Program-made: the position numbers and the translations under genes
DNA from: Dysgonamonadaceae bacterium
GTDB taxonomy: Bacteria; Bacteroidota; Bacteroidia; Bacteroidales; Dysgonomonadaceae
Assembly (NCBI GenBank): GCA_031269865.1
Contig: JAISYO010000091.1
Coordinates: 1 to 35,409, forward strand
DNA: 35,409 nt
Direction: 5' to 3'
Notes under the pieces: model-generated
Told to the model about the DNA's origin: nothing
Database searches by the model: none
Seen by the model: the letters and a program-made list of their open reading frames with translations, nothing else
In this document: one piece after another, positions 1 through 7,538 of the stretch
Layout: the number at the start of each line of letters is the position of its first letter
How positions within the stretch are numbered: the first letter of the stretch is position 1

Positions 1-129
1 TAAATGGAAATACAATGCCCCTCCACCGAAAAATGGCTCGATATACCTACCTTTATATTTCGGTATATGCTTTTCGATATTGGGGATTTCATTGGATTTC
101 CCGCCTCTGTATTTGATTAATGGTTTCAT
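1..129 (-). CDS. D12-class DNA adenine N6-methyltransferase, N-terminal part (runs off window)
   Basis: Reading the minus strand from an ATG at 129 gives 43 open codons up to the window edge. The N-terminus has the KYRGGK signature that opens Dam/D12-class adenine methyltransferases, and residues 31-38 (EPFFGGGA) are the FxGxG AdoMet-binding motif I. The enzyme would methylate adenine in a short recognition site, either as the modification half of a restriction-modification system or as a solitary methylase. It starts 39 nt after the caspase-like gene on the same strand, so it is probably the last visible gene of the XRE-TIR-TIR-caspase operon. The catalytic DPPY motif and any restriction enzyme would lie beyond position 1 and cannot be judged. 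Family assignment is strong for such a short piece; the biological role is inferred. Confidence 0.8.
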   Translation of the reverse strand, partial: MKPLIKYRGGKSNEIPNIEKHIPKYKGRYIEPFFGGGALYFHL

Positions 130-168: not shown

Positions 169-1122
169 CTATATTCTATCTTTTGTAATCAAATTCCAAT
201 AATGTTCGCCTAATATTGTCAATTTACACGATTTGCTCTCCATTGCTGCAAAATACATATGTTCGGCATCAATAGGCACTACTAAATTAATACGATTATA
301 CTTTTGTAATAATTCAAATTTCAGTGTGTTTTCTTTATTTGGCTCTTCGCTCGTTGGTTCAAAACTTGGGTCAAGTTTAAAGTCTTGTCCTTTTTCAGGG
401 AACAATTCCGTCAATTTTTTCAAGTCAGATAAAGAAATTGGCGGTTGAACTTTCCGTAAAGTTATAAAACTACGAACATTCGTTTTGAAAATTGGGCGTT
501 GTTCCCATGCGCCTAACGATTGGTCAATATGTGCATAAATACTACCCGGCGTTATATCACCGACTAAATTTGCAACGCTACCATTCATTGCATCAACAAA
601 TAAATTTGTAAAAACTCCGTTTCCACCTTCTTCAATTGCATATTGATTTTCACTTGAAGCCGTTAAAATGGTAGTTCCTTCTGTAAGTATTGACTTGTCT
701 TCTTGCGGGGACGATTTACCCATTACTCCTGCATGACAACAATCTAAAATAATAACTTTGTTTCTTGCCTGCGAATTATTGACAATATGTAGCAATTCAT
801 TCATCGGCAATCCATCATCGCCATCTTTGCAGTCGGAAGTAATCAAATAACCGCCTGTATTTTCAATATAACCGTGTCCTGAGAAATAAAATAACGCTAT
901 ATCGCATTGGTCTTTAAATAGTTCTTCAATTTTGTTTTTCAAATCTTTTCTATTGATAGAAGTAGAAGAACTCGTGGCAATTTCAATATCTACATCAAAG
1001 TTTTTCGTGCCATCGCCGTGCCTGTCAAGCACTTGCTTGATAGCATACGCATCATTAACGCAACCTTTTAATAGGCTTATGTTTTCGTAATAATCAATGC
1101 CAACGACTAATGCTTTTCTCAT
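169..1122 (-). CDS. Caspase-like (peptidase C14) protease, candidate effector of a type IV Thoeris-like system
   Basis: This is a 317-aa protein with a caspase/metacaspase fold at residues 1-220. It opens with a typical first strand (ALVVGIDYY), has the catalytic histidine in FYFSGHG (His83), and the catalytic cysteine in LDCCHAG (Cys129, directly before His as in metacaspases). Residues about 225-317 form a second region, with a conserved-looking stretch near 283-306 (VPIDAEHMYFAAM, then LTILGEHYW), that may sense a signal. There is no signal peptide or membrane segment, so it is cytosolic. The gene begins 2 nt after the second TIR gene and is clearly co-transcribed with both TIR genes. In type IV Thoeris a TIR protein makes a cyclic ADP-ribose isomer that switches on a caspase-like protease, which then degrades cell proteins. 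That role here is inferred from context and catalytic residues. Confidence 0.85.
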   Translation of the reverse strand: MRKALVVGIDYYENISLLKGCVNDAYAIKQVLDRHGDGTKNFDVDIEIATSSSTSINRKDLKNKIEELFKDQCDIALFYFSGHGYIENTGGYLITSDCKDGDDGLPMNELLHIVNNSQARNKVIILDCCHAGVMGKSSPQEDKSILTEGTTILTASSENQYAIEEGGNGVFTNLFVDAMNGSVANLVGDITPGSIYAHIDQSLGAWEQRPIFKTNVRSFITLRKVQPPISLSDLKKLTELFPEKGQDFKLDPSFEPTSEEPNKENTLKFELLQKYNRINLVVPIDAEHMYFAAMESKSCKLTILGEHYWNLITKDRI

Positions 1123-1124
1123 AA

Positions 1125-1535
1125 TTATTTGTTTTTACCTTCTTTCATTACTTGGTCTATTGCAGAAGCAATTTTATCCCAGTCCCAATCACTGGTTCTA
1201 TTTCTCTGTAACCCTGTTGGCAATAGAGTAATTGTATTTGCTCCACCAACATAAACTCCAAAGATTGGAACATTTTGTGTTTTTGCAAAATCAATCTCTT
1301 TAATTACACCTGTTGCAATGTATGTTTTTTTGCCAACAAGCACAATTAATATATTACATTTATTTATTTTTGATTTAATTAGTTCTTCCCACTCTTTTGG
1401 GGGAAGAGATTCTTTTGATGACCAATCTTCAATATTGAAAGGGGTGCGTGAGTTTTTTGCTTGACCTATAAATAGATTTTTTTCAGTGCTATTATTGTCA
1501 AAATCAAAACTTATAAATGCTCTTGGATTTGCCAT
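1125..1535 (-). CDS. TIR-like (DUF1863/ThsB-type) domain protein, second copy
   Basis: This is a 136-aa protein made of a single TIR-like domain of the MTH538/DUF1863 type found in ThsB proteins. The first strand and loop read RAFISFDFD (residues 5-13), the central strand ILIVLVGKKTY lies at 62-72, and the helix that carries the catalytic glutamate in TIR NADases reads GVIKEIDFA (Glu80). It should consume NAD to make a nucleotide signal or sense infection; this is inferred from family. It lies 23 nt after the first TIR gene and 2 nt before the caspase gene. It is clearly divergent from the neighbouring TIR protein, so this is not a recent duplication. Confidence 0.82.
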   Translation of the reverse strand: MANPRAFISFDFDNNSTEKNLFIGQAKNSRTPFNIEDWSSKESLPPKEWEELIKSKINKCNILIVLVGKKTYIATGVIKEIDFAKTQNVPIFGVYVGGANTITLLPTGLQRNRTSDWDWDKIASAIDQVMKEGKNK

Positions 1536-1558
1536 CTTTTATTTTTAAAATTATTATT

Positions 1559-1957
1559 TTATCCTAATTCTTCAATAGCCTTTACAATAGAACTACCTTG
1601 CCATTTGACAATTTTATCTGCATTATCTTTTACTACTTTGGAAGTTCTTTCAGAACCCCACGGTTCAATTGCAATAATAGGTTTACCATATGACTTAGCA
1701 ATGTCAATTTCTTCGTTAATCCATTTGCTATAAGAAGCATAAACACCTGCCAAAATTAAAACACAACTTGTTCCTCTCATTTGGGCATCAATTGCTTCTC
1801 TTAATTGTTTTTGTGTTCCATTCGTATGAATAGGGTCATTTTGGGGAACAGAGTGATTATAATAATCCAACCCTTGTTCATCAAGCATTTCCACAATTCT
1901 GTCATAAGCATCTCCGTATGCCCATGAATGACTAATAAATAATCTGTATGTTTTCAT
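1559..1957 (-). CDS. TIR-domain protein, first copy (candidate ThsB)
   Basis: This is a 132-aa single-domain TIR protein. It has the BB-loop-side first strand YRLFISHSW (residues 4-12), the core strand CVLILAGVYASYSKW (65-79) and the helix WINEEIDIA in which Glu83 matches the catalytic glutamate of NAD-cleaving TIR enzymes (W then four residues on to E, followed by I). It would act in the cytosol as the signal-producing partner of the caspase-like protein. Its ATG overlaps the stop of the XRE gene by 4 nt (ATGA), which indicates translational coupling. The region is visibly more A+T-rich than the mobilization genes next to it. Family call is firm; the product molecule and trigger are unknown. 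Confidence 0.85.
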   Translation of the reverse strand: MKTYRLFISHSWAYGDAYDRIVEMLDEQGLDYYNHSVPQNDPIHTNGTQKQLREAIDAQMRGTSCVLILAGVYASYSKWINEEIDIAKSYGKPIIAIEPWGSERTSKVVKDNADKIVKWQGSSIVKAIEELG

Positions 1958-2277
1958 ATCTCAAAATTTTTATTACTGTTATTATCTTTTGTTTGATATT
2001 TCACCTTTTCCTCTGCCACTTTCAACGCTTGTAATGCAATGTCTTCATCTAAAACTTCATAAACGACTTTATCGGAAAGCCATGCTACTAATAATTCATT
2101 TTCGCTTACATTAAAGTATGCAGCAAGTTTAATAATCTGTTCCCGTGAGGCTTTTCGCTGTCCACGTTCGATTCGGCTCATTATAGCTGGGTCAATATCA
2201 AGGTAAGCAGCAATCACTCGTAATGGTAACTGCTTGCTTTCTCTCAATTCTCTTAGTATTTCGCCTATATTTTTCAT
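1954..2277 (-). CDS. XRE/Cro-type helix-turn-helix regulator
   Basis: This is a small regulator of about 107 aa. The start chosen is the ATG at 2277, giving MKNIGEILRELRESK. A longer frame from 2361 would add a hydrophobic, unrelated N-terminus that lies over the likely promoter. Residues 5-62 are a classical lambda-repressor-like HTH, with recognition part YLDIDPAIMSRIERGQRKAS, followed by a short C-terminal helical tail ending in AEEKVKYQ. Regulators of this form are often found beside type II DNA methyltransferase genes in Bacteroidetes. It is the first gene of the run XRE-TIR-TIR-caspase-methyltransferase and overlaps the first TIR gene by 4 nt. It probably represses its own operon. Confidence 0.85.
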   Translation of the reverse strand: MKNIGEILRELRESKQLPLRVIAAYLDIDPAIMSRIERGQRKASREQIIKLAAYFNVSENELLVAWLSDKVVYEVLDEDIALQALKVAEEKVKYQTKDNNSNKNFEI

Positions 2278-2373: not shown

Positions 2374-3594
2374 CTATATCTTAATCCCCTTGTTTTTATT
2401 CACTTCCGATTTCTTTTCGATATTGAATCTTTGCTGTACCTCCTGATATTTCTGCTTAAACCATTCTAAAATATCCATCCCATTGAGATTCAGCCTCAGT
2501 TTATTCGGATTATTCGATTCTTTCTCGATTTTCAGTTTAACATCTTCCGCTGCAAACTTCCGGTTGTGTTCAGGCGAAAAGAAAGAAAAAGATTTGACTG
2601 TTAGAGTTTTACCATCAAACAGCGACTTTATATTTTCAACAGCAAGCCCAATTTTCCGGCAAAGTCCGGCAATGCGGAGTTGTTCTTTCATCATCGGGAA
2701 CAAACTGTGAATCAAGTTCAGCTCTTCCTGCGCCTTGTACGGCTCGTATTCCTGTTTTGCCTTTTGGAGTTTGGCTTCTACGGTTGCCAATTCTTTTGTT
2801 TTATCTTTTACATGCCTGTCCATATCAAGAAATTTTTCCCTTGCCTCATCTTTGCGGTCGTACAAATCCCGAACCTTTTCATAGACTTCCTGATGTTCCT
2901 GCTTTTGTTCCTGAATGTCTTCTTTCAGATGCTCGTTTTCGACAAACAGTTCCCTGTAATACTGCTGTGTTGTGATATTTCTTGCCTCTGAACCCCTGAC
3001 GCCCCGTTGCAATCCATATTTCTGCATCCGCTCTGCGTAACTGTCCTGATAGCCTTCGAGTTTATCCCTTGCCATCACATCATCGGCGCACAAGCGGGCG
3101 GCGTTGGGATTCTTTTTCCGATACTTTTTCTTACCATCCTCCGGCTTTGTCGCTTTAGCTTTTCTTCTTTCACCGGTAACAATCGGGACTACGGTAGCAT
3201 GGATATGGGGCGTCTTTTCGTCCAGATGCAGGACAGCCGATACAAGATTATCCTTACCGAATGTTTCCCTTACCCAATTGAGACTGTCCCGACACCAATC
3301 ATCCAGTTTGCCGGAAGCCTCAATGCGTTTCATATCTTCCGGACTGCCGGTGAGCATAAACCGCAAGGCGCGAACTTGTTTTTCATTAATCTTGCGGGTG
3401 ATACCGGCGTGTTCTATCCGGTATTGGATTGCTTCCGTCCGGTTGTTTACCCCATCGGGAAAATGAATCAGTTCTTTATTCAGGTGTGTACGGGTTTTGT
3501 CCGCGTTTTTCGGGTCGATTGTCCGCTCAATGTGTGCCGACGTTGCGGCATCATTGCCCGACGCTTTTTTGATATTGAGTACTGCATATCCCAT
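2374..3594 (-). CDS. mobV: MobV-family relaxase (plasmid mobilization / Pre-type protein)
   Basis: This is a 406-aa protein. The N-terminal relaxase domain shows the MobV motif 1 (HIER, His21/Arg24), an HLNKEL segment near residue 39 and the metal-binding three-histidine motif HLDEKTPHIH (123-132). Residues about 220-310 are a charged coiled coil, as is usual in Pre/Mob proteins. It would nick one strand of oriT and pilot it into a recipient, using a conjugation channel supplied by another element. A long inverted repeat directly upstream (3691-3749) is the likely nicking region. The gene is downstream of the primase-like and ATPase genes on the same strand. Length is typical and the gene looks intact. 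Confidence 0.93.
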   Translation of the reverse strand: MGYAVLNIKKASGNDAATSAHIERTIDPKNADKTRTHLNKELIHFPDGVNNRTEAIQYRIEHAGITRKINEKQVRALRFMLTGSPEDMKRIEASGKLDDWCRDSLNWVRETFGKDNLVSAVLHLDEKTPHIHATVVPIVTGERRKAKATKPEDGKKKYRKKNPNAARLCADDVMARDKLEGYQDSYAERMQKYGLQRGVRGSEARNITTQQYYRELFVENEHLKEDIQEQKQEHQEVYEKVRDLYDRKDEAREKFLDMDRHVKDKTKELATVEAKLQKAKQEYEPYKAQEELNLIHSLFPMMKEQLRIAGLCRKIGLAVENIKSLFDGKTLTVKSFSFFSPEHNRKFAAEDVKLKIEKESNNPNKLRLNLNGMDILEWFKQKYQEVQQRFNIEKKSEVNKNKGIKI

Positions 3595-3638
3595 TTTAGA
3601 TTATTTTACTGTTAATAATTTGATTGGAAATTTTATCC

Positions 3639-3658
3639 GGCTTCCGTTTCGGGAAGCC
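3639..3658. other. Small stem-loop near the MobV start
   Basis: GGCTTCC (3639-3645) and GGAAGCC (3652-3658) can pair as a perfect 7-bp stem with a 6-nt loop. It sits between the relaxase start and the long inverted repeat. There is no T-tract on either strand, so it is not a convincing terminator. It may be part of the oriT region or of the relaxase leader. Confidence 0.4.
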
Positions 3659-3690
3659 TTCAGGAGGAGTCCAGAGGGGGAACACCTTTG

Positions 3691-3749
3691 GCTTATTGGG
3701 GCATTTTTAGCGTAGAGCAACGGAGCGTTAAGAAAATGCCCTAATAAGC
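3691..3749. other. oriT: Candidate oriT: long inverted repeat upstream of the relaxase gene
   Basis: The left arm GCTTATTGGGGCATTTT (3691-3707) pairs with 3733-3749, broken only by one G-T wobble. After a small bulge the stem continues with 3708-3712 against 3726-3730. The loop is about 13 nt. The hairpin lies 97 nt upstream of the mobV start, in a 192-bp spacer that otherwise holds no gene. MobV relaxases normally act at an inverted repeat next to their own gene, so this is the best oriT candidate in the window. The nick position is not identifiable by eye. Confidence 0.6.
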
Positions 3750-3786
3750 TACGGCAATTTTTAAATTGTCCCTGCGGCACGTTCGC

Positions 3787-4683
3787 TCAAAGTTTGAAAC
3801 CCTTGCGTACCTGCTTTTGAGGAAGCTGTTTTTTGTTGCACAAATATTCATTCAGGTCTTTATGCTTGGCGTAGAACTCCGACTGGTCAGTAACATTTAG
3901 GTAACAGAGTTTCAGTTCCTGAACTGCACGTTTTCCTGCTTCGTCATTATCTAAAAAGGTGGTAATGCTTCCGTATCCGGTCAGAGAACTTTTTATTTTT
4001 GCCAGATTGCTCAACGAATTGAGGATTATCACATCGGCTTTGGCTTGCTGCCAATTCTTCATCGTCAGGAACGAAAGGTAGTCCATAAAACCTTCGAACA
4101 GTTGGCAGGTATTGTTATTGCCGGCTGCTTTTATTGTTGTGGTGTTTTTTGAGGTACATCCTTTGAAATACCTGTTCCGCAACTCATAGCCTCCGGTATC
4201 GTTTCTGAACCCAACAGCAAAATAGGGTTTGCCGTTTACGCTGTAATGTACTTCCTGACAATGCAGCCGGGCGATTTCAGTGTTTATACTCCGTTCATTC
4301 AGGTAAGTGAGTAAACTTGGATTAGTCAGCACATCAATTCTCTGAATAGAAATTGTCTGTTGGTGTGGAATTTTCGGGACAATCTCTTTTTCCTTTTGAA
4401 AAGAAAAAGAGGCTGTCCCGGCAATCTTTTGCTCCAGTAATTGCATGGCTCTACCGTTGGAACAGCTTTCGATACGCATAACAAGGTCGATGAGCGTTCC
4501 GCCTTCGCCTGTCCCGTAATCTATCCACAGGTTTTTATTGTAATCCACTTTCATGCTTGCGTTATGGTCTTCCCTGAATGGAGAATGATACATGCCATAA
4601 CTGACGTTGTCTTTTGCCGGATAAATGCCTGAACCGGCAAGATAATCCCGTATCGGGAACTGATTGATTATTTTTGAGTTCAT
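3787..4683 (-). CDS. Toprim/primase-like protein of a mobilizable element, degenerate zinc finger
   Basis: This 298-aa protein resembles the CHC2-Toprim primase proteins of Bacteroidales mobile elements. Residues 28-67 follow the zinc-finger layout (HSPFREDHNASMKV, then WIDYGTGEGGTLIDLV), but the usual cysteines are replaced by His, Ser, Asp and Gly, so zinc binding is probably lost. The Toprim core has LFEGFMDYLSF (metal-binding glutamate) and FLDNDEAGK (acidic pair). It would prime DNA synthesis of the transferred or excised element. It lies between the iteron-like hairpins and the oriT candidate, on the same strand as the ATPase and relaxase genes. Confidence 0.8.
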   Translation of the reverse strand: MNSKIINQFPIRDYLAGSGIYPAKDNVSYGMYHSPFREDHNASMKVDYNKNLWIDYGTGEGGTLIDLVMRIESCSNGRAMQLLEQKIAGTASFSFQKEKEIVPKIPHQQTISIQRIDVLTNPSLLTYLNERSINTEIARLHCQEVHYSVNGKPYFAVGFRNDTGGYELRNRYFKGCTSKNTTTIKAAGNNNTCQLFEGFMDYLSFLTMKNWQQAKADVIILNSLSNLAKIKSSLTGYGSITTFLDNDEAGKRAVQELKLCYLNVTDQSEFYAKHKDLNEYLCNKKQLPQKQVRKGFKL

Positions 4684-4750
4684 GAAATTTAATACTTAAT
4701 TGATTGATATTTTTTCTTCACAGGAATAGTCATATCCCGTTAAATACTGC

Positions 4751-4860
4751 TTTACTTTATCATGTGTATATAGAATACAGGGTAAAGTAAAGCGTTTCCG
4801 GTAATCCCCGCCGGAAACTTTACTTTACTCTATTATCTATGCACCCGAAGTAAGGTAAAG
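4751..4860. repeat. Iteron-like repeat cluster with a large hairpin
   Basis: The 183-bp spacer between the ATPase and primase-like genes has four copies of a TTTACTTTA-like unit in alternating orientation. These are 4751-4760 (plus), 4782-4791 (minus), 4819-4828 (plus) and a variant around 4850-4860 (minus). The middle pair forms a hairpin: GTAAAGTAAA plus GTTTCCGG (4782-4791, 4794-4801) pairs with CCGGAAAC plus TTTACTTTAC (4811-4828), with a 2-nt bulge and a 9-nt loop. There is no T-tract. The position beside a RepA-like ATPase and a primase-like gene suggests a replication origin or a binding site for an element-encoded protein. A role as transcription attenuator is also possible. Confidence 0.55.
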
Positions 4861-4866
4861 CGATTA

Positions 4867-5916
4867 TCAGTAATGATAGTCGGGATTTAAGCCGTATTTC
4901 TTGGCGGTATCCTTTACTATCATGCGCTTGTTCTCAAGAAAAGTTTTTAACTTACATAACTTGTTTTCGCCATAGATACAGTTGATTGTGGCATATCCTC
5001 GTTTAAGGGCTTTCATCAACTCACTGTAACCGTACCGTTCCGATTCGGGAAAAGTCGCTTCTAATGCTTGCCTGTGCTGCTCTTCTTTCAACTCTGAATA
5101 GTCAAAAAAATGAGATTCGCTTTTATTCTTATCGAAACTGTATCCATCAACTAATTCGGGAAAAGCGTCTTCATTAATCCGGAACGCAAACGGTTCAAAG
5201 TCCATTGCGCGGATATGGACCGCCTGAACGGTACTAATATTGCTGTCCAGTTTGTCTTTGGCAACTTCCAAAACCGTTTCAGCCTTGTTGTTTAACTCCG
5301 TTCCGATATGTCCACGTGCATTTTCATCCGCCTTGTTCTGGTGCAGGATAGTATGAATGTGGATTTGCCTCTCATCCGTCCACTGCATAAGTTTGGAAAT
5401 GATTTTGGTCGATTCGCTTGGACTGTTAATGTCGTAAACCATGTCCCGGATGCCGTCGATAATGACCAATCCCAGACCCTCCGTATGATAAATGGCTTCT
5501 TCCACAATAGCTATCCTGATTTCCGGCGTATGTCTGCGCAATGATAGGAACTCTAAATTTTTCGGTTCTTTATCCAACGGCAAGCCTGCCATGCGGACTA
5601 TACGCTTCATTACCTTTTGGCAATGGTAAGGGCTTTGTTCAGTATCCACATACAGGATTTTTCGCTTGTTTTCGGGAAGTTCGGCGGCGTATTGCAATAC
5701 TGTTCCATTCTTCAATGATGCAGCCACAATCGCCGATACGTTAAACGTCTTTTTACTCTTAGCCTTGCCGATGGAAGCGCTGAAATTACCTAATGTCCCG
5801 ATGGCTGAACCATGTACTTTAAGAATTTCAGGGGCTACTATATATTCTCCGGTAAGCGTCAAACGGGAAGCCTGCCAAAGAATAATGACTTCCTGATTTT
5901 TCGTTTGCTCTGCCAT
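4867..5916 (-). CDS. RepA-like AAA family ATPase (RecA-fold helicase/loader type)
   Basis: This is a 349-aa protein with a RecA-like ATPase core in residues about 15-250. The phosphate-binding loop reads SASIGKAKSKKTF (near 46-58), a variant of Walker A in which the usual GxxGxGKS is altered. ILYVDTEQSP follows, then Walker B LGLVIIDGIRDMVYD, and a sensor strand IHTILHQNKAD with GTELNNKAETV. This layout is that of plasmid RepA/AAA_25 proteins common in Bacteroidales mobile elements. The C-terminal about 80 residues look like a DNA-binding or partner module (YGYSELMKALK). It starts 3 nt after the HTH gene ends and is followed by the iteron-like cluster, which points to a role in replication or excision. 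Confidence 0.82.
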   Translation of the reverse strand: MAEQTKNQEVIILWQASRLTLTGEYIVAPEILKVHGSAIGTLGNFSASIGKAKSKKTFNVSAIVAASLKNGTVLQYAAELPENKRKILYVDTEQSPYHCQKVMKRIVRMAGLPLDKEPKNLEFLSLRRHTPEIRIAIVEEAIYHTEGLGLVIIDGIRDMVYDINSPSESTKIISKLMQWTDERQIHIHTILHQNKADENARGHIGTELNNKAETVLEVAKDKLDSNISTVQAVHIRAMDFEPFAFRINEDAFPELVDGYSFDKNKSESHFFDYSELKEEQHRQALEATFPESERYGYSELMKALKRGYATINCIYGENKLCKLKTFLENKRMIVKDTAKKYGLNPDYHY

Positions 5917-5919
5917 AGC

Positions 5920-6234
5920 CTATTTCTTTAAAAGTTTGTTCGACATCACATACTGCTGCGCTTCCCTTGCAATCTGCATTTGCGTTTTCACCGGATTTTG
6001 GCGTAACCATGCCTCCAATTCTTCCTTTTCAAAATACAGCATTTTCCCCTGCGGTTTGTAATGGGGAATCAGGTTACCCGACGTTAATTTGTACAGGTAA
6101 CTTTTCGACAGGTTGAGGAACTTGCTCGCTTCATCAAAGCTAAGAATGTTTTTTACCATAAATACCATTTGTTCGAGTTCGGAAACCCGGTCTTCAATAC
6201 TTTTCATTTCAAAATATTTTTTGTAATTGAACAA
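5920..6234 (-). CDS. Excisionase-type helix-turn-helix protein
   Basis: This 104-aa protein has an HTH_17/MerR-like winged helix in residues 29-80: ILSFDEASKFLNLSKSYLYKLTS then IPHYKPQGKMLYFEKEELEAWL. The wing with LYFEKEELEAWL is diagnostic. The start may be the ATG at 6234 or the internal one at 6207 (MKSIEDRVSELEQM); the N-terminal residues form a short coiled coil. Such proteins act as recombination directionality factors or as regulators of mobile-element operons. It is the first gene of a pair with the ATPase, 3 nt apart. Confidence 0.85.
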   Translation of the reverse strand: MFNYKKYFEMKSIEDRVSELEQMVFMVKNILSFDEASKFLNLSKSYLYKLTSGNLIPHYKPQGKMLYFEKEELEAWLRQNPVKTQMQIAREAQQYVMSNKLLKK

Positions 6235-6246
6235 ATGGAGTGTGCA

Positions 6247-6284
6247 CCCTCCGTAACTTGTAATCGACTACGGGGGCAAAAGTA
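6247..6284 (-). promoter_or_regulatory. Candidate promoter and leader hairpin of the HTH-ATPase operon
   Basis: On the minus strand TACTTTTG (6277-6284) fits the TAnnTTTG -7 box about 43 nt before the ATG at 6234. Directly downstream is a hairpin: CCC-CCGTA (6247-6249, 6251-6255) pairs with TACGGGGG (6269-6276), leaving one bulged base. The transcript would carry this hairpin close to its 5' end, where it could affect translation or stability. No -33 box is evident. Confidence 0.4.
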
Positions 6285-6336
6285 ATTCAGTAAAAATCAA
6301 CGGAAATTGAGCTTTGTTTGAGGTATCAACCTATGC

Positions 6337-7230
6337 TCAATGTTTTTTCAGTTGTTTGACGTAGCTGTCAATGATTTCCGATTTTCTGGGAGAGATGTAT
6401 TTGATGCTGTCGTTGGCGGATGACAAATCGCTGTTGTTAAGGTATTTTTCTTTCTTCGGGGCGAGTACCAGCCTATTGTTGGCGATGACGGACTGCCATT
6501 CGTAGGTGATATAATCATGTGCACTCAGTTTCATCATGAAATACGCAAGCAAACGGTTATTGTCGGACTTCAAAGCCCCATCCAGACGGCAATAAAAGAA
6601 GTCTTCAAGGATTTTAGGCGTGATTTCGGTGGTAAAGATATGAGCATCATTAACACAGTCGGTCAGAATCCGAATAGCTTCATCATCCAGCTTGCAGTTA
6701 AACGGATTGTCTTTGCCGACTATCTTTTTTGATGGGGTATTTTTTTCTTTTTCATTGGATTCTTCTACGGTATTGACTATCGGTGGCGGCTGTAACCGTT
6801 CCTGTTCTTCGTTTTGCAGGAGTTCCAAATACCTGCTGTAAACAACCAACTTGATAATAATGGAAAAATAAGGTAGTTGTTCGTCATACGAATCCGGATT
6901 TTCAAAATATAATCTGTCATCGAAATTGTTATATGGAAAAGCGATGTACTTCTTGCGTACTTCCGGCAAAAGATTTTCTATGAATGTGGTTTCCCAAATG
7001 AAGTTAGGCGTTTTCCAGTCGAAAGCAAAAGATTGGATAGCCGGAACTTGTTGATTCATGGATACAAGCTCTTCCGTAATCCTGAAAATCTCTTTTCGGA
7101 TATAGTCCGGGCGTTGCTTGCTATTAAGGTATGCCTTTTTCAAAGACAATGCATCCCTAAGTGCGTCGTAGTCGTGTTGGGCGCACCGATCTATAAGTTT
7201 TTGAAGTGATTCAAACTGTTTTTCAATCAT
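6337..7230 (-). CDS. Hypothetical protein of the mobile element (297 aa)
   Basis: I do not recognise a family. The protein is soluble and mostly helical, with no signal peptide. A low-complexity linker rich in Pro, Glu and Lys (about residues 145-170) separates an N-terminal half from a C-terminal half that looks like a small winged-helix-like fold. It is the gene closest to the tRNA attachment end of the element. A -7 box TATCTTTG at 7251-7258 (minus strand) and a short palindrome GTAC-5-nt-GTAC lie directly before its start, so it has its own promoter and possibly an operator. Confidence 0.6.
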   Translation of the reverse strand: MIEKQFESLQKLIDRCAQHDYDALRDALSLKKAYLNSKQRPDYIRKEIFRITEELVSMNQQVPAIQSFAFDWKTPNFIWETTFIENLLPEVRKKYIAFPYNNFDDRLYFENPDSYDEQLPYFSIIIKLVVYSRYLELLQNEEQERLQPPPIVNTVEESNEKEKNTPSKKIVGKDNPFNCKLDDEAIRILTDCVNDAHIFTTEITPKILEDFFYCRLDGALKSDNNRLLAYFMMKLSAHDYITYEWQSVIANNRLVLAPKKEKYLNNSDLSSANDSIKYISPRKSEIIDSYVKQLKKH

Positions 7231-7235
7231 CTGCC

Positions 7236-7258
7236 GTACTTTTTGTACTGCAAAGATA
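7236..7258 (-). promoter_or_regulatory. Promoter of the 297-aa gene with small palindrome
   Basis: TATCTTTG on the minus strand (7251-7258) matches TAnnTTTG and ends about 20 nt before the ATG at 7230. GTAC-TTTTT-GTAC (7236-7248) lies just downstream and could be an operator half-site pair. Confidence 0.42.
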
Positions 7259-7383
7259 GTGAAAGGTTGGTTTTTAAGAAAATAGGAGTAGAAAACGGAA
7301 GAAATCGACAGGATTGTCGTTAATAATATCTAAAAGTTGTCCTATTAAAATAGGAAAGTACGCTTTATCCTTGTTTTCGCCAG

Positions 7384-7403
7384 TTAGTACACTTTTAGTA
7401 CAC
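7384..7403. repeat. Short direct repeats near the element end (candidate recombinase sites)
   Basis: TTAGTACAC occurs twice in tandem (7384-7392, 7395-7403). TTAGTAC recurs at 7451-7457 at the 3' end of the tRNA gene. Their position between the element genes and the tRNA target suggests arm or core sites for a tyrosine integrase. This is inference from location. Confidence 0.35.
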
Positions 7404-7414
7404 CTTTTAAAAGC

Positions 7415-7452
7415 AAAAACTCCTGACAATCATTGATTTATCAGGAGTTTTT
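7415..7452 (-). terminator. Perfect 12-bp stem-loop terminator after tRNA-Leu
   Basis: AAAAACTCCTGA (7415-7426) and TCAGGAGTTTTT (7441-7452) form a perfect 12-bp stem with a 14-nt loop. Read on the minus strand it lies right after the tRNA 3' end and its second arm ends in a run of T, so it should terminate the tRNA transcript. By symmetry it may also work on the plus strand. Confidence 0.75.
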
Positions 7453-7454
7453 AG

Positions 7455-7538
7455 TACCCAGAGCCGGGATCGAACCGGCATGGAAGTGAATCCACTGGTG
7501 TTTGAGACCAGCGCGTCTACCAATTCCGCCATCTGGGC
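7455..7538 (-). tRNA. tRNA-Leu (anticodon CAA)
   Basis: The reverse complement folds as a class II tRNA of 84 nt. The acceptor stem pairs GCCCAGA with TCTGGGT (one G-U at the end). The anticodon stem pairs CTGGT with ACCAG around the loop CTCAAAC, giving anticodon CAA. A long variable arm GTGGATTCACTTCCAT follows, and the T arm is GCCGG-TTCGATC-CCGGC. No CCA is encoded. The mobilizable element lies directly downstream of its 3' end, so this gene is the probable integration target, as known for the Bacteroides element NBU1, which also uses a tRNA-Leu 3' end. Confidence 0.95.

What the first reader, a model, noticed from the sequence alone, without database searches (positions are those of the whole stretch)
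1125..1957. Two divergent TIR proteins feed one caspase effector
The TIR proteins share only the fold and differ throughout, including in the first loop (SHSW against SFDFD) and in the helix before the glutamate. Known Thoeris loci sometimes have several ThsB proteins that sense different phages but share one effector. Here one TIR may be the sensor for one phage class and the other for another, or one may be a regulator.
Basis: inference. Interest (0 to 1): 0.6.

Follow-up and report, generated by a model that had tools for sequence, protein, structure and literature searches.

The report
Two swappable TIR sensors, one caspase
A bacterial anti-phage operon carries two different infection-alarm (TIR) genes in front of one caspase-like executioner gene, and relatives across bacteria show each alarm type occurring alone with the same kind of executioner, so they look like exchangeable, independently sufficient alarms rather than halves of one sensor.

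Summary
Two PF08937 (ThsB_TIR) proteins, TIR1 (1559-1957, SHSW) and TIR2 (1125-1535, SFDFD), precede an intact caspase (169-1122) in one tight operon of the type IV Thoeris (TIR-caspase) kind. Among 93 dereplicated caspase loci with both flanks held, 61 have one detected TIR: 12 of TIR2's class (A), 18 of TIR1's class (C), 28 of a third class (B), 3 of class D. Twenty-five have two or more; only the window pairs C with A. Caspases 86-89% identical are served by class A, B or C in different genomes, with DNA similarity beginning at the caspase start codon, so whole sensor genes have been exchanged. In the nearest relative (caspase 81% identical) the upstream TIR is a pseudogene while the class A TIR and caspase are intact. 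Both window TIRs keep the TIR fold and catalytic Glu. Best reading: two independently sufficient sensor-synthases share one effector (inferred, not assayed). A heteromeric sensor, as in S. aureus Thoeris, is disfavoured but not excluded. Several ThsB genes per effector are already known in Thoeris, so the locus is a new member of a known kind; the sensor exchange is the interesting part.

The parts
1559..1957 (-). TIR1, class C ThsB_TIR protein (132 aa, FISHSW); catalytic Glu E83 codon 1709-1711, conserved F7 codon 1937-1939
   Evidence: ORF; PF08937 5.4e-18; class alignment with E83 and F7 invariant in 26 rows; AF2 model pLDDT 89.5 and TIR/ThsB fold matches
1125..1535 (-). TIR2, class A ThsB_TIR protein (136 aa, FISFDFD), directly 5' of the caspase; catalytic Glu E80 codon 1296-1298, conserved F7 codon 1515-1517
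   Evidence: ORF; PF08937 8.3e-11; E80 and F7 invariant in 27 rows of classes A and B; AF2 model pLDDT 84.3 and TIR fold matches
169..1122 (-). Caspase-like protease (317 aa), the shared effector; dyad H83 (codon 874-876) and C129 (codon 736-738)
   Evidence: PF00656 2.9e-20; H83 and C129 in 103 of 103 aligned relatives
1954..2277 (-). Small HTH (XRE-type) regulator overlapping TIR1 by 4 nt; the ORF can also be read from a TTG at 2361
   Evidence: PF01381 1.9e-9; homologues in 53 of 198 genomes of the class, several directly before methyltransferase or TIR genes
1..129 (-). Start of a D12-class adenine methyltransferase gene downstream of the caspase, cut by the contig end; probably a neighbour, not part of the defence unit
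   Evidence: PF02086 8.5e-10; the window starts at base 1 of contig C143

Best explanation
The locus is a TIR-caspase (type IV Thoeris-like) abortive-infection operon with two independently sufficient sensor-synthases. After phage infection TIR1 or TIR2, each on its own cue, converts NAD+ to a cyclic ADP-ribose signal (N7-cADPR in the published type IV system). Either product activates the one caspase-like protease, which degrades cell proteins and stops the phage. Shown here: gene content, operon layout, intact active sites, separate occurrence of each TIR class with related caspases, and exchange of whole TIR genes in front of conserved caspases. Inferred: that both TIRs are active, make the same signal and sense different phage cues.
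For: Each class occurs alone: 12 class A and 18 class C single-TIR loci among 93 with both flanks held. Caspases of L010 (A), L071 (B) and L101 (C) are 86-89% identical while their TIRs are 25-28% identical or unalignable, and DNA similarity starts at the caspase ATG. In L021 a TIR1 homologue abuts the caspase; in L014 a TIR2 homologue does; the window has both in series. In L014 the upstream TIR is a pseudogene but TIR-A and caspase are intact. Adjacent TIR class changes at least 21 times on the caspase tree. Both window TIRs keep Phe and catalytic Glu. Precedent: the second thsB of B. cereus MSX-D12 is dispensable (PMC7272460).
Against: No activity, signal or phage data. A retained Glu does not prove activity: S. 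aureus ThsB1 has one that is not needed. Class-level independence elsewhere does not prove independence of these two proteins, which could have become co-dependent. L014 is a metagenome assembly. L071's TIR has no ATG/GTG/TTG start at the expected place.
Confidence: 0.65

Rival explanations
1. Heteromeric single sensor: one TIR (for example TIR1) binds the phage component and recruits or activates the other (TIR2), which makes the signal, as ThsB1 and ThsB2 do with the capsid protein in S. aureus Thoeris.
For: Direct precedent in PMC12578639. Two-TIR operons are common (25 of 93 loci), tightly spaced in the window, and the second TIR is often of a different class.
Against: Both classes in the window are found as the only detected TIR with related caspases; partner classes vary freely (C+A, B+A, B+C, B+B, A/B/C+D); the upstream TIR is decayed in L014 and lacks an intact frame in L090.
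Confidence: 0.2
2. Sensor turnover snapshot: a new TIR has been captured next to an old one and one of the two is redundant and on its way out, so that single-TIR loci of different class arise by gain followed by loss.
For: Whole-gene exchange before the caspase; decayed upstream TIR in L014; TIR1 groups with class C proteins of other phyla, not with the main Bacteroidota class C group.
Against: Neither window TIR shows decay; TIR1 has one of the shortest branches of its clade. The rival is compatible with independent sensors at present.
Confidence: 0.1
3. The two TIRs make different signals and only one (TIR2, adjacent) activates the caspase; TIR1 serves another effector or none.
For: Classes A and C also occur with 8xMP or DUF4231/SLATT_1 membrane effectors, so TIRs of these classes are not tied to caspases.
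Against: No other ThsB_TIR gene is in the (86% complete) genome and no second effector gene lies in the operon; the nearest relatives of TIR1 sit directly before caspases.
Confidence: 0.05

Closest known systems
Type IV Thoeris (TIR + caspase-like protease, N7-cADPR; Rousset et al. 2025, doi 10.1126/science.adu2262, read only through PMC12847820)
   Same: TIR gene(s) and a caspase-like protease gene in one operon.
Type I Thoeris with several ThsB genes (B. cereus MSX-D12; PMC7272460)
   Same: Several divergent TIR proteins around one effector (18% identity there, about 25% over 48 aa here); one TIR reported sufficient there.
   Different: The effector is a SIR2-SLOG NADase, not a caspase.
S. 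aureus Thoeris ThsA/ThsB1/ThsB2 (PMC12578639)
   Same: Two divergent TIR proteins and one effector in one operon.
   Different: There the two form one capsid-triggered complex with ThsB2 as synthase, and the effector is a NADase; here each class is found alone with related caspases.

Membership tests
Type IV Thoeris | TIR-domain gene and caspase-like protease gene in one operon | tested here: met
   PF08937 twice and PF00656, gaps 23 and 2 nt, same strand
Type IV Thoeris | Caspase His-Cys dyad and TIR catalytic Glu present | tested here: met
   H83/C129 in 103 of 103 relatives; E83 and E80 invariant in the class alignments
Type IV Thoeris | Homology to the experimentally tested TIR and caspase proteins | not testable with these tools
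   The paper is not held and no curated type IV model matched in NCBIfam or PADLOC
Type IV Thoeris | TIR makes N7-cADPR, which activates the caspase, and the operon protects against phage | not testable with these tools
   Needs biochemistry and phage assays
Heteromeric ThsB1/ThsB2 sensor (S. aureus type) | Both TIRs always kept together | tested here: not met
   Each class occurs as the only detected TIR with related caspases: 12 A and 18 C loci; note this tests the classes, not these two proteins
Heteromeric ThsB1/ThsB2 sensor (S. aureus type) | A phage protein bridges the two TIR proteins into one active complex | not testable with these tools
   Needs pull-down during infection
Type I Thoeris | SIR2-SLOG (STALD) ThsA effector | tested here: not met
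   The effector is a caspase; the only other gene between the HTH and the caspase is a TIR

The most novel reading that the evidence does not exclude
The bacterial TIR-caspase system is a plug-in platform: at least three divergent TIR families are exchanged as whole genes in the slot directly before a conserved caspase, must therefore converge on one activating signal, and composite operons such as this one add sensors without changing the effector.
Probability: 0.55. Interest if true: 0.6.

Novelty: new member of a known kind. Interest (0 to 1): 0.45.

Why it matters
If right, one caspase can be armed by several divergent TIR sensors. Loci with nearly the same effector but different sensors (L010, L071, L101) would let one ask directly what each TIR family detects and whether all make the same signal.

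Tried and rejected
Regulator role for one TIR: not favoured, both keep the active site and class-invariant residues. A fixed two-TIR unit: rejected, each class occurs alone. Chance ORFs: rejected by Pfam E-values and fold matches. A ThsB_TIR gene elsewhere in the genome: only these two match. Attachment-site duplication at tRNA-Leu: no second copy found in the (incomplete) genome. Promoter and terminator scans gave no more than shuffles. L036 against L043/L045/L057: labelled A against B, but their adjacent TIRs are 61-64% identical, so I do not count these as swaps. The Rousset 2025 paper is not held. Two Pfam calls failed on coordinates and were mostly redone.

Full report
What is there. The minus strand of window 169-2277 carries HTH - TIR1 - TIR2 - caspase, with a 4-nt overlap, a 23-nt gap and a 2-nt gap. 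Both TIRs match PF08937 ThsB_TIR above its cut-off and the caspase matches PF00656. The TIRs are TIR-only proteins of 132 and 136 aa with weak but detectable similarity to each other (25% over 48 aa). AlphaFold2 models from class alignments (pLDDT 89.5 and 84.3) match TIR, ThsB and nucleoside-deoxyribosyltransferase-like folds in the PDB. The caspase dyad H83/C129 is present in 103 of 103 aligned relatives.

Collecting relatives. Relatives of the caspase occur in Bacteroidota, Pseudomonadota, Actinomycetota, cyanobacteria, Bacillota and archaea, on chromosomes, plasmids and viral contigs. I classified the TIRs near 119 such caspases with HMMs built here. The TIR directly 5' of the caspase is usually one of three classes: A (like TIR2), B (FAIEDE motif) or C (like TIR1). 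A fourth group, D (TIR_2-like), mostly appears as an extra. After removing near copies (95% caspase identity) 110 loci remain, 93 of them with at least 1.4 kb upstream and 1.0 kb downstream; the window was admitted although only 168 bases are held downstream of its caspase. Of these 93, 61 have one same-strand TIR within 3 kb (12 A, 28 B, 18 C, 3 D), 25 have two or more, and 7 have none detected. The window is the only C+A pair. A Pfam scan of 135 neighbouring ORFs of single-A and single-C loci gave three matches to PF13676 and two to PF01582 (members not named in the output), so 'single' means that no further TIR was detected by my classes, with a few possible misses.

Do the two TIRs belong together? 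Caspases with different adjacent TIR classes are interleaved on the caspase tree: at least 21 changes among A, B and C (a quick tree with some long branches). Of caspase pairs 85-90% identical, 9 share the adjacent class and 5 differ (pairs are not independent). The sharpest case: the caspases of L010 (A), L071 (B) and L101 (C) are 86-89% identical, their TIRs are 25-28% identical or unalignable, and DNA similarity begins at the caspase ATG. Against the window, L014 is similar in DNA from just before TIR2 to the caspase end, with nothing matching TIR1. In L021 the TIR1 homologue abuts the caspase, with nothing between (only 549 bases are held upstream of L021's caspase). The window is therefore either C placed before an A-caspase unit, or A placed between C and caspase. 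TIR1 groups with class C proteins of Desulfuromonadaceae, Marinomonas, Photobacterium, Arcobacter, a cyanobacterium and others, apart from the class C group of Flavobacteriia-type genera and of two genomes of the window's own order (L093, L094). TIR2 and the caspase group with L013, L014 and L015. So TIR1 was probably acquired separately (inference).

Natural loss. In L014, whose caspase is 81% identical to the window's, the upstream TIR is a class B gene broken by at least two stops and a change of frame, while TIR-A and the caspase are open. In L090 the upstream class B gene has no intact start-to-stop frame. This suggests that the upstream TIR is dispensable, with the caution that L014 is a metagenome assembly.

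Wider use of the same TIR classes. Class A TIRs (L134, L140) and class C TIRs (L127, L173) also sit by 8xMP membrane proteins, and class C by DUF4231/SLATT_1 proteins (L128, L183). A pair of ThsB_TIR genes behind an HTH gene of the same family occurs in L146.

Comparison with what is known. Type IV Thoeris (TIR plus caspase-like protease, N7-cADPR) is published (doi 10.1126/science.adu2262, seen only through PMC12847820). Multiple diverse ThsB genes occur in more than half of Thoeris systems and were proposed to sense different phage components; in B. cereus MSX-D12 the second one appears dispensable (PMC7272460). In S. aureus two ThsB proteins form one capsid-triggered sensor (PMC12578639). 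The window fits the first idea better than the second, but only an experiment can decide. None of the open-access papers I found describes exchange of TIR classes in front of this caspase, but the key paper itself could not be read, so the novelty of that point is uncertain.

Verdict. Observation confirmed. Interpretation partly supported: separable sensors sharing an effector are well supported by comparative evidence, phage-class specificity is untested, and the regulator idea is not favoured.

Noticed in passing
window 1954-2277; L143-L162: The small HTH gene before TIR1 belongs to a family found in 53 of 198 genomes of the class; in the loci read, homologues directly precede D12 and Eco57I methyltransferase genes (L149, L153) and a pair of ThsB_TIR genes (L146), often with overlapping or abutting ends. 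It may be a general regulator of defence operons.
   Followed up: partly
L127, L134, L140, L173 (8xMP); L128, L183 (DUF4231/SLATT_1): TIRs of the window's two classes also sit next to small membrane proteins of Pfam 8xMP or DUF4231/SLATT_1 with no caspase beside them (L134 has a separate class B TIR-caspase unit), suggesting other effectors for the same sensor classes.
   Followed up: partly
L020:1170-5954: One locus holds a TIR-like 177-aa protein, a class A/B-like TIR, an 8xMP membrane protein, two class D TIRs, a class C TIR and the caspase in a row on one strand.
   Followed up: no
window 2374-7538: The operon lies beside MobV relaxase, primase-like, AAA and excisionase-type genes that end at a tRNA-Leu (CAA) whose 3' end faces them, as in an integrative mobilizable element; the other end and any integrase lie beyond the contig start, and no second attachment-site copy was found.
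   Followed up: partly
L013:4156-4584, L015:4124-4573: The upstream class B TIRs in the nearest relatives of the window's operon carry N-terminal extensions, hydrophobic in L015 (MWPLLLLGVGALLIKAF), which may anchor that sensor to the membrane.
   Followed up: no
L069, L078, L080: Caspases of this family (54-56% identical) with no TIR of classes A-D detected nearby; L078 has only about 1.3 kb upstream.
   Followed up: no
L071:4690-5001: The class B TIR next to a caspase 88% identical to L010's has no ATG, GTG or TTG at the expected start although the domain is open; a rare start codon or an assembly error.
   Followed up: no
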